Assembly: GCA_902778455.1 (NCBI GenBank)
Contig: CACYXR010000002.1
Span: 62,001 to 126,000, forward strand
DNA length: 64,000 bases
Origin: an uncultured Selenomonadaceae bacterium
GTDB taxonomy: Bacteria; Bacillota; Negativicutes; Selenomonadales; Selenomonadaceae
Direction: 5' to 3'
Shown: positions 10,349 to 37,112 of the stretch, piece by piece
How the letters are laid out: each line of letters begins with the position of its first letter
Position numbering within the stretch: the first letter of the stretch is position 1
Notes under the pieces: generated by a model
The model's input: the letters and a program-made list of their open reading frames with translations, nothing else
What the model was told of the DNA's origin: nothing
Databases searched by the model: none
Position numbers and translations under genes: made by a program

Positions 10349-10594
10349 TTAGGATATAATACTTTTTTCCATCATTTGATACCATTCCGACAATTTTTGT
10401 GGTGCCAATCTTCGGATTTCATTCTCGTTTTTGCCGAAAGCCCAGCGTACGCCGACGCCGCCGTGGGAGTTATCGCAACTCGAAGTCCAGCCGCCGTGGT
10501 ATGTGACGAAGAACCGTCCGTCATCAAGTTCGCCGTCATTTTTAGTATCCTCGGCGAAGCGCAGGCAGATTTCCGTGTATTCTTCGACGTTCAA
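10349..10594 (-). CDS. Small protein translationally coupled to hydG, unknown function
   Basis: This 81-residue acidic protein starts at TTG, overlapping the TGA stop of hydG by four bases (TTGA), so it is probably translated by coupling. It has no signal peptide or membrane segment. Notable features are two Trp, a GGWTSSCDNSHGGVGVRW stretch near residues 34-51 with Gly, His and one Cys, and a C-terminal helix EIRRLAPQKLSEWYQMMEK. I do not recognise the family. Its position at the end of a hydrogenase-maturation transcript suggests a role tied to HydG, but this is inference. The convincing overlap and normal codon use argue for a real gene. Confidence 0.6.
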   Translation of the reverse strand: MNVEEYTEICLRFAEDTKNDGELDDGRFFVTYHGGWTSSCDNSHGGVGVRWAFGKNENEIRRLAPQKLSEWYQMMEKSIIS

Positions 10595-12039
10595 AACCGG
10601 AAATCCCTCATGCCGTCATGAAGCTCTTTCAGGTATTCGGCTGCCTTTGCACGGACGGCGGGACTGGGAATTTCCTGAAGCTGGGCTTTAATGACCAATT
10701 CGCCTTTTTTCTGTGTTTCTTCGCTGGCGTAGTCTTCCAGATATTCCTTCAGCGTCATCAGCGCGTTAGGTAAGCAGCAATTCTTGATCTGACCGCTTTT
10801 GCAGAGAGACATGAATCGGTCGCCTGTGCGCCCCGCGCGGTAGCAAGCCGTACAAAAGCTCGGTACATACCCCAGGTCGAGAAGCCATTGAACCACCTCA
10901 TCCAACGTCCGAGTGTCGTTTACGTCGAATTGGGCAGAATTTTCCTCCGGCAGTTCCTTTGTATCGTAACCGCCGACACTGGTGCAGGAGGCGCCGGATA
11001 TTTGCGAAATGCCAAGATCGAGAACGCGTTCCCGGCTTTCCTGTGATTCCCGCGTCGAAACAATCATGCCCGTATAGGGTACGGCAATCCGGATAACTGC
11101 AACGAGTTTTGCAAAAGTATCATCGTCGATTGCGTTAGAGAATGCAGAAGGATCGATGTCGTCTGCGGGGCGGATGCGCGGCACGCTGATCGTGTGCGGA
11201 CCGACGCCGTGTACTGCTTCCAAATGCTCAGCGTGCATCAATAGCCCGACAAAATCATAGCGATAAAGGTTCAGCCCGAATAACACGCCGCAGCCCACAT
11301 CGTCGATGCCGCCTTCCATCGCACGGTCCATCGCCTCGGTATGCCAGGCATAATCGTGCTTCGGTCCGGCCGGATGCAACTTTTCATAATTATTTTTGTG
11401 GTAGGTCTCCTGAAAGAGAATATAGGTGCCAATGCCAGCTTCCTTCAGGCGGCGGTAATTTTCCACTGTCGTTGCAGCGATATTGACGTTGACGCGACGG
11501 ATGGCGCCGTTTTTGTGCTTGATGGAGTATATCGTCTTGATGCTTTCCAGCACATATTCAATCGGGTTATTTACCGGATCCTCACCGGTTTCCAACGCGA
11601 GCCTTTTATGCCCCATATCTTGGAGTGCGATTACTTCGCGGCGAATTTCATCTTGCGTCAGCTTTTTCCTTCGAATGTTTTTGTTTTTCGCATGGTAAGG
11701 GCAGTAGACGCAAGCGTTGATGCAATAGTTGGACAGGTACAGCGGTGCGAAGAGAACAATGCGCTGCCCGTATAATTCTTCTTTGATTTTCTTCGCCAGA
11801 GAAAACATTTTCTCATTAAGATCAGGCAACTCGCAGGCGAGTAATACTGCCGCTTCCCGGTGTGACAGTCCTTTGCAGTCGCCGGCACGATCGAGAAGCG
11901 ATTCGATCAAGGCACGGTTTGACTTATTTTCCTCGGCGTAGGCGAGAGTATCCATAATTTCGCCGTGATGGATGAACTCCTCGGCATGCAAGGATTTTGG
12001 ATTATATTTTATATTGTCCATGATCTCACTCCTTATCAT
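10591..12039 (-). CDS. hydG: [FeFe]-hydrogenase H-cluster radical SAM maturase HydG
   Basis: HydG cleaves tyrosine to p-cresol and dehydroglycine, giving the CO and CN ligands of the [FeFe]-hydrogenase H-cluster. The 482-residue protein has the radical SAM cluster motif CINACVYC (CX3CX2C) near residue 106, and the C-terminal auxiliary-cluster Cys set CTAC...CKSGQIKNCC near 393-421 that separates HydG from ThiH and HydE. The GDRF and RAGRTG elements between them are also typical. The regulator gene upstream overlaps its start by 14 bases. HydE, HydF and the hydrogenase are not in this window, so maturation genes are dispersed in this genome. Confidence 0.95.
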   Translation of the reverse strand: MIRSEIMDNIKYNPKSLHAEEFIHHGEIMDTLAYAEENKSNRALIESLLDRAGDCKGLSHREAAVLLACELPDLNEKMFSLAKKIKEELYGQRIVLFAPLYLSNYCINACVYCPYHAKNKNIRRKKLTQDEIRREVIALQDMGHKRLALETGEDPVNNPIEYVLESIKTIYSIKHKNGAIRRVNVNIAATTVENYRRLKEAGIGTYILFQETYHKNNYEKLHPAGPKHDYAWHTEAMDRAMEGGIDDVGCGVLFGLNLYRYDFVGLLMHAEHLEAVHGVGPHTISVPRIRPADDIDPSAFSNAIDDDTFAKLVAVIRIAVPYTGMIVSTRESQESRERVLDLGISQISGASCTSVGGYDTKELPEENSAQFDVNDTRTLDEVVQWLLDLGYVPSFCTACYRAGRTGDRFMSLCKSGQIKNCCLPNALMTLKEYLEDYASEETQKKGELVIKAQLQEIPSPAVRAKAAEYLKELHDGMRDFRF

Positions 12040-12286
12040 CCGCGATTTTCGTGTAGACCGTTTTCGTGCTGACGTCCTTTAAGGCGCCGAGTTTACCGGA
12101 AAGAGCGCTGATGACGTCCGCGGGAGCGTCGAGAACGACGCTGATGACAGAAATACCGCGTTCCTTGTATGGTACCCCCATGCGTCCGATGATGTAGTCG
12201 CCGTACTCGTGCAAAATTGCGTTCATTTTTTCGGCCGCCGAACGGTCACTGACGATAATGCCAATTAAAGCCACCCTGTTTTCCAT
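12026..12286 (-). CDS. TM1266-family putative iron-only hydrogenase system regulator
   Basis: This 86-residue protein matches the TM1266 family, ACT/NikR-C-like ferredoxin-fold proteins encoded beside [FeFe]-hydrogenase maturation genes. The N-terminal MENRVALIGIIVSD strand, the central EYGDYIIGRMGVPY block and the VVLDAPADVISALSGKLGAL helix are typical. A strong GGGGGG ribosome site precedes ATG. It overlaps hydG, so the two are co-expressed. The ligand and the regulatory mechanism of the family are not established, to my knowledge. Confidence 0.9.
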   Translation of the reverse strand: MENRVALIGIIVSDRSAAEKMNAILHEYGDYIIGRMGVPYKERGISVISVVLDAPADVISALSGKLGALKDVSTKTVYTKIADDKE

Positions 12287-12319
12287 AAAACTCCCCCCAA
12301 ATAATTAAATCAAACAGGA

Positions 12320-12404
12320 AATAAAAATCTCCCCTGCAAATACGCGGGGAGACAATAGTTTCCGATTTTCCCGCGCTCGGCGTCAGAACACCTTCCGCCT
12401 TGCT
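12320..12404 (-). promoter_or_regulatory. Structured leader with competing hairpins (candidate riboswitch or attenuator)
   Basis: Between the predicted start of transcription (about 12403) and the first gene lies a leader of about 117 bases. A small stem GGCG/CGCC (12399-12396 with 12382-12379) is followed by CGCGGG (12375-12370), which can pair with CCCGCG (12348-12343). That pairing uses three of the Cs needed for the terminator stem, so the two structures exclude each other, as in an antiterminator/terminator switch. I could not match the 5' part to a known riboswitch class by eye. Confidence 0.5.
12322..12352 (-). terminator. Leader terminator hairpin upstream of the TM1266-hydG genes
   Basis: On the minus strand TCTCCCC and GGGGAGA (12346-12352 with 12328-12334) pair and are followed by TTTTTA. 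The hairpin lies between the promoter and the first gene, so it is an attenuator rather than an operon end. Confidence 0.65.
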
Positions 12405-12410
12405 GTGAAT

Positions 12411-12439
12411 ATTATAACAGTAAACGGAGGATGTGGCAA
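12411..12439 (-). promoter_or_regulatory. Promoter of the TM1266-hydG operon
   Basis: On the minus strand TTGCCA (12439-12434), a 17-base spacer and a perfect TATAAT (12416-12411). Confidence 0.75.
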
Positions 12440-12480
12440 ATGCGGGAGCGGGCCATAGATCTTTCTCACGAATTTATCAC

Positions 12481-12530
12481 GAAAAAATAGCATGATTCCC
12501 TGAAACATAAGGAGTTCATGCTATTTTTTC
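12481..12530 (-). terminator. Terminator of the feo operon
   Basis: GAAAAAATAGCATGA (12481-12495) pairs perfectly over 15 bp with TCATGCTATTTTTTC (12516-12530). Read on the minus strand the stem ends in a T6 tract, just after the last feo gene; it is symmetrical and could act both ways. Confidence 0.85.
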
Positions 12531-12551
12531 GTAATAGTATGCACCTGATAT

Positions 12552-12704
12552 TTATTTTCCGCAATGCGGACAGCTTGCACAGCTCGTGCAGCCTGATTCC
12601 GTGCCGCAGCAATCGTGTTTGTCGTCGGCAAAATTACGGTAGATGTGGCGCGCGGCGGCAATGAGAGCGACGCCGATGACAGCGCCTAAGATATAAGTTG
12701 CCAT
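12552..12704 (-). CDS. FeoB-associated Cys-rich membrane protein
   Basis: This 50-residue protein follows feoB on the minus strand. One N-terminal membrane helix (YILGAVIGVALIAAA, residues 4-18) is followed by a basic stretch and a tail with CC, CTSCASCPHC. The helix plus Cys-rich tail is the layout of the small proteins encoded after feoB in many Firmicutes and Bacteroidetes, which may handle ferrous iron at the FeoB pore (inference). The ribosome site GAGGTG overlaps the feoB stop codon. Confidence 0.85.
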   Translation of the reverse strand: MATYILGAVIGVALIAAARHIYRNFADDKHDCCGTESGCTSCASCPHCGK

Positions 12705-36892: not shown

Positions 36893-36924
36893 TGGCAATG
36901 TCAGGATATGACATTGATAATTGA

Positions 36925-37112
36925 ATATGGATTGGATTGGGTGTCGAGAGACTTAATAGAAAAGCCGGTTGAAGGCCGGCGCGGTCCCGCCACTGTATCA
37001 GGGAGCAACTTTGCAATAGTCCACTGGGGAAAGCCTTGGGAAGGCGCAGAGAAGCGATGAACTGGAGCCAGGAGAACTGCCCGATTGACGATCACCGTTA
37101 AAACCTGCGAGG
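36925..37112 (+). ncRNA. Cobalamin (AdoCbl) riboswitch
   Basis: The element shows the class signatures in order: GCCGGCGCGGTCCCGCCACTG near 36976, AGTCCACTGGG-AAAGCCTTGGGAAGGC near 37018-37045, GATGA near 37056 and the B12 box GAGCCAGGAGAACTGCC at 37065-37082, with a closing arm near 37095-37112. It controls cbiK and perhaps the gene after it. The 766 bases between tpsB and cbiK contain, in order, a terminator, a promoter, this riboswitch, a second terminator and two family C repeat units. Confidence 0.95.

What the first reader, a model, noticed from the sequence alone, without database searches (positions are those of the whole stretch)
12287..12440. Leader with mutually exclusive hairpins in front of the TM1266-hydG genes
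A strong minus-strand promoter (TTGCCA-17-TATAAT) is followed by a leader of about 117 bases with a terminator stem (TCTCCCC/GGGGAGA plus T5) and an alternative pairing CGCGGG/CCCGCG that takes three of the same bases. A short GGCG/CGCC stem lies 5' of them. This is the layout of an attenuator or riboswitch acting on [FeFe]-hydrogenase maturation. I could not assign it to a known class by eye. It could be a new sensor, for example of iron, S-adenosylmethionine or tyrosine, but the ligand is pure inference.
Basis: partly seen in the sequence, partly recalled or inferred. Interest (0 to 1): 0.6.

Follow-up and report, generated by a model that had tools for sequence, protein, structure and literature searches.

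The report
New attenuator RNA before hydrogenase-maturation genes
The window holds a short RNA switch-like leader, belonging to a previously undescribed RNA family that sits in front of genes for building the [FeFe]-hydrogenase active site in many Bacillota, and it most likely stops or permits transcription of those genes in response to a signal that is still unknown.

Summary
The promoter, 5' hairpin, alternative pairing CGCGGG/CCCGCG and terminator are all at the stated place. The leader is conserved in all eight congeneric genomes in which the locus was found, although the flanks have diverged.

Following the gene TM1266 outward showed that most TM1266 genes in Negativicutes and many in Clostridia carry such a leader. 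A covariance model built from the commonest type finds it in front of TM1266-hydG, TM1266-hydE-hydG-hydF and hydE-hydF. It also finds it before TM1266 plus an SsuA-type transporter, and TM1266 plus NifH-like/Hyp genes. Covariation is strong: 101 double-change cells against 24±5 in shuffles, and 120 against 39±5 on 29 sequences not used in the model. No Rfam family matched and no paper in the held library describes it.

In the types tested the 3' strand of the conserved domain doubles as the antiterminator; own partners pair better than permuted ones (-13.3 against -10.3±0.4 kcal/mol). This predicts an OFF switch acting by transcription termination.

The window's version is a reduced form: it keeps hairpin P1 and lacks P3/P4. 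Its homology to the family is supported but statistically modest. The signal (small molecule, metal, or a protein such as TM1266) is unknown.

The parts
12411..12439 (-). sigma-70-type promoter TTGCCA-17-TATAAT
   Evidence: sequence; TATAAT kept in the seven congeneric loci examined for spacing, 6-8 nt before the leader's GCAA; no 5' end mapping
12375..12403 (-). P1 hairpin: GC-AA-GGCG-[GAAGG..UUCUGA]-CGCC-GA-GC; the conserved element after the promoter and probable site of recognition
   Evidence: nearly invariant in congeners apart from the loop; aligned by model R2 to P1 of the wider family; P1 covaries in the wider family
12370..12376 (-). antiterminator 5' strand GCGCGGG; its first two bases are also the 3' strand of the outer P1 pairs
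   Evidence: sequence; folding of truncated transcripts; partner-swap test over leader types
12342..12348 (-). antiterminator 3' strand CCCGCGU, inside the terminator's 5' arm and loop
   Evidence: sequence
12323..12352 (-). intrinsic terminator UCUCCCC...GGGGAGA + U5
   Evidence: fold; equivalent terminator in all 8 congeners
12287..12301 (-). Shine-Dalgarno sequence (GGGGGGAG) and spacer of TM1266
   Evidence: sequence; GGGGGGA/GGGAGGA kept in congeners
12026..12286 (-). TM1266-family protein (86 aa), first gene under the leader
   Evidence: TIGR03959 116.6 bits; PF21699, weak NikR_C; relative with solved structure 2nzc
10591..12021 (-). HydG, H-cluster radical SAM maturase; the ATG at 12021 looks a better start than the ATG at 12039 listed by the ORF tool (inference)
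   Evidence: TIGR03955 921.9 bits

Best explanation
It is a cis-acting transcription-attenuating leader RNA, a shortened relative of a previously undescribed leader family in front of TM1266 and hydrogenase-maturation genes in Bacillota. As RNA polymerase leaves the promoter, hairpin P1 (with the NAAGG/UCUGA internal loop) folds first. If nothing holds P1 closed, its outermost 3' bases and the following GGG (GCGCGGG) pair with the terminator's 5' arm, forming an antiterminator, and TM1266-hydG is transcribed. When a signal holds P1 (in larger members the P1/P3/P4 core) closed, that strand is not available, the terminator forms and transcription stops: an OFF switch. Shown by comparison: the conserved domain, the two exclusive pairings and their co-evolution, and the gene association. 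Inferred: the transcription start, the direction of the switch, and that a signal exists. Unknown: the signal. A metabolite or metal tied to H-cluster or metal-cofactor assembly is my first choice for the large members. For the window's short form, direct recognition of P1 by a protein is about as likely.
For: Conserved leader in 8 congeners, found only at this locus. Family model R1: P1 has 5 of 6 pairs with double changes. Enlarged set: 101 double-change cells against 24±5 in shuffles and 9-31 when pairs are slid. 29 sequences not used in the model: 120 against 39±5, all six P1 pairs and five of six P4 pairs with double changes. Class-wide, 38 R1 matches; apart from an SsuCBA-type transporter site (L153) and a TM1266 remnant (L154) they lie before TM1266 genes. 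In 80 named TM1266 loci, 29 matches, all on the sense strand, 27 upstream of TM1266. hydE-hydF directly under the RNA in L160. Partner-swap test of antiterminator strands: -13.3 against -10.3±0.38 kcal/mol over all types, and -12.48 against -11.26±0.28 within the largest group, none of 5000 permutations as good. Co-transcriptional folds of the window's group. Window leader against R2 with filters off: best match is the leader on the correct strand, aligned to P1, 11.0 bits, E 0.019 for 311 nt. Congeners L118 18.3 bits and, with R1, L007 17.5 bits at the same element.
Against: No expression data, start mapping or binding data. Within the genus P1 hardly varies, so there is no covariation in the window's own group, and the antiterminator duplex taken alone is not better than shuffled leaders. 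The window's link to R2 is modest (E 0.02-0.2 depending on the leader and the amount of sequence searched) and rests on P1 only. P3 and P4 are absent.
Confidence: 0.72

Rival explanations
1. Protein-controlled attenuator: TM1266 (a small ferredoxin/ACT/NikR-C-like protein) or another RNA-binding protein holds P1 closed, so that the TM1266 operon is controlled by its own product. (This and the riboswitch reading are two versions of the best explanation and differ in the signal only.)
For: The leader tracks TM1266 across very different downstream genes: hydG, hydE, NifH-like/Hyp, SsuA-type transporter, and genomes lacking a HydG over cut-off. Leader architectures differ (window type, R1/R2 type, R3 type, f2 type) while the P1 internal-loop duplex UCU-GA/NA-AGG recurs in several, even in permuted strand order. 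The window form is a small hairpin. TM1266 has weak NikR_C similarity and a relative of solved structure.
Against: Two sites lack TM1266 in cis (L153, L160). No RNA binding by this family is known to me. Larger members have many conserved unpaired bases, as aptamers do.
Confidence: 0.35
2. Metabolite or metal riboswitch: the P1/P3/P4 core is an aptamer for a compound or ion of H-cluster or related metal-cofactor assembly (iron, SAM or its products, tyrosine, a sulfur compound).
For: Three-stem core with conserved joining bases and covarying stems. One regulon joins hydE, hydF, hydG, TM1266, SsuA-type transporters and NifH-like/HypFCD genes. Helix P3 and the antiterminator share a strand.
Against: No ligand was tested. 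The window's form lacks P3/P4, so a pocket that needs them cannot exist there. The gene set points to no single ligand.
Confidence: 0.45
3. Not a switch: an ordinary terminator plus a conserved 5' hairpin that stabilises the mRNA or sets a fixed read-through level; the alternative pairing is chance.
For: In the window alone the alternative pairing is not better than shuffles, and the z-score of the fold is only -1.6.
Against: Antiterminator strands co-evolve with their terminator partners between and within leader types. Strong covariation in the P1 and P4 domain whose 3' neighbour is the antiterminator.
Confidence: 0.12
4. Translation-coupled attenuation (leader peptide) or a T-box.
For: Same general layout: promoter, alternative hairpins, terminator.
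Against: No ATG between start and terminator in the window leader and no conserved leader ORF in congeners. No T-box or other riboswitch match in Rfam even at relaxed E-values.
Confidence: 0.02

Closest known systems
Terminator/antiterminator riboswitches of the OFF type (from established knowledge, e.g. SAM-I, purine)
   Same: Structured 5' domain whose closing 3' strand also forms the antiterminator; intrinsic terminator before the first gene; biosynthetic regulon.
   Different: No sequence or structure match to any of 4227 Rfam families; ligand unknown; the window form has only one short hairpin.
Autogenous ribosomal-protein-type leaders (from established knowledge)
   Same: Leader stays with one small-protein gene while architectures diverge, and a small internal-loop duplex recurs in different strand order.
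   Different: TM1266 is not a ribosomal protein; no RNA binding shown; two sites lack TM1266.
czcD (NiCo/iron) riboswitch, cobalamin and SAM riboswitches
   Same: Considered because of the metal and SAM chemistry of HydG/HydE.
   Different: None reaches even a relaxed E-value in the leaders; the only Rfam gathering-level match in the window is a cobalamin riboswitch far away.
Orphan motifs of Stav 2019 (PMC6429828) and Brewer 2021 (PMC8632094)
   Same: Conserved leader RNAs found by comparative work; some in Negativicutes or its orders (ldh2, gltD, SLH).
   Different: Neither main text mentions hydrogenase, hydG, thiH or nitrogenase; supplements and the 2017 survey of 224 motifs could not be read.

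Membership tests
TM1266/hyd leader family (model R2, this work) | P1 hairpin with stem-NAAGG...YCUGA-stem right after the promoter | tested here: met
   GGCG-GAAGG..UUCUGA-CGCC aligned to P1; window 11.0 bits, congener L118 18.3 bits
TM1266/hyd leader family (model R2, this work) | P3/P4 core (AUCGUNCUGA ... AAGGCGA) | tested here: not met
   in congeners L118 and L005 nearly all of that part of the model is skipped (1-2 residues); in the window it is replaced by 11 unmatched residues. The window is therefore called a reduced relative, not a full member
TM1266/hyd leader family (model R2, this work) | 3' strand of the conserved domain pairs with the terminator 5' arm | tested here: met
TM1266/hyd leader family (model R2, this work) | located in front of TM1266/hydrogenase-maturation genes | tested here: met
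Known Rfam riboswitch or leader families | covariance-model match | tested here: not met
T-box | T-box sequence and specifier loop | tested here: not met
   no Rfam T-box match at E<=10
Leader-peptide attenuator | short translated ORF before the terminator | tested here: not met
   no ATG in the window leader before the terminator
Riboswitch (functional definition) | direct ligand binding that alters expression | not testable with these tools
   needs in-line probing and reporter assays
Intrinsic-terminator attenuator | mutually exclusive terminator and antiterminator conserved by evolution | tested here: met

The most novel reading that the evidence does not exclude
A new riboswitch class dedicated to [FeFe]-hydrogenase H-cluster (and related metal-cofactor) assembly across Bacillota. 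Its recognition module, the P1 internal-loop duplex, is kept even when the strands are circularly permuted (R3 type) or the rest of the aptamer is lost (window genus).
Probability: 0.35. Interest if true: 0.88.

Novelty: new variant of a known kind. Interest (0 to 1): 0.72.

Why it matters
How cells decide when to build the elaborate [FeFe]-hydrogenase active site is poorly known to me from the literature, and TM1266, a conserved companion of HydE/F/G, has no assigned function in the papers I could search. A conserved RNA in front of these genes, found in Negativicutes and several clostridial lineages, gives a direct handle: its ligand or binding protein would reveal what signal controls H-cluster assembly and probably what TM1266 does. 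It also widens the regulon to SsuA-type transporters and NifH-like/Hyp clusters, which suggests where to look for that signal.

Tried and rejected
1. Rfam at gathering and relaxed thresholds for the window and 49 related loci: no family explains the leaders. The weak miRNA-like match is the bidirectional terminator hairpin at 12475-12536, not the leader.
2. Judging the alternative pairing from the window alone: not significant, so I turned to comparison.
3. Leader ORF or T-box: rejected.
4. hydG as the gene the leader follows: rejected, since f32 genomes have leader + TM1266 but no HydG above cut-off.
5. A second copy in the window genus: the only extra pattern hit is inside leuS.
6. A false R1/R2 match: L167 lies in rpsL.
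7. Literature searches for TM1266, hydG, hydE or hydrogenase with riboswitch or leader: nothing relevant.
8. Regex extraction failed for part of the loci; one search is the valid version.

Full report
1. What is there. Read on the minus strand, 12440-12287 contains a sigma-70-type promoter (TTGCCA 12439-12434, 17 nt, TATAAT 12416-12411), a 5' hairpin P1 (12403-12375), GCGCGGG (12376-12370), an intrinsic terminator (12352-12323) and a strong Shine-Dalgarno sequence before TM1266. TM1266 (TIGR03959, 116.6 bits) is followed by hydG (TIGR03955, 921.9 bits). Upstream on the same strand lie feoA, feoB and a small Cys-rich ORF, closed off by a hairpin that looks like a bidirectional terminator at 12475-12536. 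From sequence alone the leader is not remarkable: z = -1.6, and the alternative pairing is within the shuffled range (p = 0.24).

2. Conservation in the genus. The genome has one TM1266 gene. Seven genomes of the genus have it next to hydG, and an eighth keeps the leader at a contig end (L118). Related contigs in a named collection are labelled uncultured Selenomonadales, Selenomonadaceae and Schwartzia sp. (RGIG4989, roe-deer rumen). In all eight the block GCAARGCGGAAGG-(variable)-CUGACGCCRAGCGCGGGAAAA is kept, 6-8 nt after TATAAT where measured (seven loci), while upstream sequence, P1 loop length (up to about 40 extra nt) and the spacer to the terminator vary. Truncated transcripts are predicted to fold into the antiterminator in seven of eight; full transcripts form the terminator in all eight.

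3. The wider family. TM1266 occurs in 107 of 341 Negativicutes genomes. I took the DNA in front of these genes and found leaders before most of them, of several types; some f2 genera have a short untranslated region without a leader. The commonest type has P1 (GGU..ACC and a three-base inner stem, often with NAAGG..UCUGA), an A-rich joint, P3 (UCGUNCU/AGGCGA) and P4, then AUAG, then a terminator. On 25 sequences (A1) 47 cells change on both sides against 15.6±3.5 in shuffles. Model R1 over 341 genomes gives 38 matches, in front of TM1266 genes with two exceptions: L153, in front of an SsuCBA-type transporter, and L154, before a TM1266 remnant. Over a phylum sample R1 also hits genomes outside the class. 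There it precedes TM1266-hydG, TM1266-hydE(-hydG) and, in L160, hydE-hydF without TM1266. With 44 sequences (A4, model R2) the double-change count is 101 against 24±5, and P3 gains compensatory changes (C-G to U-A, 4 cells).

4. A check on sequences outside the model. TM1266 loci from named genomes were searched with R2: 29 matches, all on the sense strand, 27 upstream of TM1266, including Caproiciproducens galactitolivorans (L182, 88 bits) and Ruminococcus spp. The operons are mostly TM1266-hydE-hydG-hydF or TM1266-hydG. The 29 sequences give 120 double-change cells against 39±5, with all six P1 pairs affected. That alignment is fitted to the model, and its weakest matches (around 20 bits) carry little weight on their own.

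5. Exclusive pairings co-evolve. The antiterminator strand differs completely between types (window genus GCGCGGG; main type AAGGCGAG..AUAG; f32 type GGCGAAAGCAC; f2 type GCAAGAUGC), and the terminator arm changes with it. Own pairs average -13.3 kcal/mol against -10.3±0.38 for permuted partners, and -12.48 against -11.26±0.28 within the main group, with none of 5000 permutations as good. The sequences are related, so these numbers show the direction of the effect rather than an exact probability. The R3 type was not in this test. In the four types tested the shared strand is the 3' strand of the conserved domain or directly overlaps it, which predicts that a stabilised domain frees the terminator.

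6. Where the window's RNA belongs. R2 aligns the window leader to P1 and leaves P3/P4 unmatched: 11.0 bits, best of four matches in 311 nt scanned without filters, E 0.019. Its congener L118 scores 18.3 bits, and L007 scored 17.5 with R1. The same P1 motif, the same position after the promoter, the same gene and the same switch logic argue for descent by loss of P3/P4. The statistics are moderate, so I call it a reduced relative rather than a full member.

7. A third architecture. In 23 Negativicutes genomes the leader (R3 type) has UCU-GA-stem...stem-RA-GGA, with strongly covarying stems (36 double-change cells against 13±3). The matches lie in front of TM1266 genes (compare places). This looks like the same duplex as P1 of the other types with the strand order reversed, as if circularly permuted. 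If homologous, it points to this internal loop as the recognised element. I did not test the homology formally.

8. What it responds to. The gene set (hydE, hydF, hydG, TM1266, SsuA-type transporters, NifH-like/Hyp genes) suggests cofactor assembly with radical-SAM enzymes and metal centres. f32 genomes carry leader + TM1266 but no HydG above cut-off, so the signal is not specific to HydG. TM1266 itself (weak NikR_C similarity, relative 2nzc) is a candidate binder. No evidence here separates a ligand from a protein.

9. Novelty. No Rfam 15 family matches the leaders at relaxed E-values. No paper found in the held library describes a leader for these genes. Two large motif surveys do not mention hydrogenase genes in their main text. 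The supplements and the 2017 survey could not be read, so prior listing under a neutral name cannot be excluded.

Noticed in passing
L040, L047, L050, L059, L062, L067, L068, L083 (upstream of TM1266): Another leader type in family f2/g31: CAUCUCACAUCAAAA...UUGCGAUGnAAGAUG, several with a terminator CGCAUCUG... that can pair with its 3' strand. Different sequence, same logic.
   Followed up: partly
L061, L071, L076-L078, L080-L082, L085-L089, L093, L094, L096, L097, L099, L102, L103, L107 (upstream of TM1266): R3-type leaders in which the P1 internal-loop duplex appears with its strands in the opposite order (UCU-GA-stem...stem-RA-GGA), as if circularly permuted.
   Followed up: partly
L155, L156, L157 (family f32): Operon TM1266 - NifH-like (not seen as a separate ORF in L155) - two nitrogenase component 1-like proteins - HypF (HypC or HypD following in some) under the R1-type leader, in genomes without a HydG over cut-off. 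The function of the nitrogenase-like pair is not assigned.
   Followed up: partly
L153:4979-5074 (-): R1-type RNA directly in front of an SsuCBA-type ABC transporter without TM1266; related SBP genes follow TM1266 in L171, L172, L174, L187, L239, L259. A possible clue to the signal.
   Followed up: partly
L255:3019-4065 (+): A radical-SAM protein resembling HydE lies after the TM1266-SBP pair, with a BKACE-like enzyme further downstream; not classified with a family model.
   Followed up: no
window 36922-37098 (+): Cobalamin riboswitch, 98.1 bits, the only Rfam gathering-level match in the window.
   Followed up: no
window 12475-12536: Strong near-perfect hairpin with A-run and T-run, probably a bidirectional terminator between the feoAB genes and the leader; it gives spurious miRNA-family matches.
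   Followed up: no
window 12552-12704 (-): Small 50-aa Cys-rich ORF directly after feoB, without an NCBIfam match; probably a FeoB-associated small protein (inference).
   Followed up: no
L154:4620-4748 (-): R1-type leader in front of a truncated TM1266 remnant, upstream of CoA-transferase genes: a decaying second copy.
   Followed up: partly
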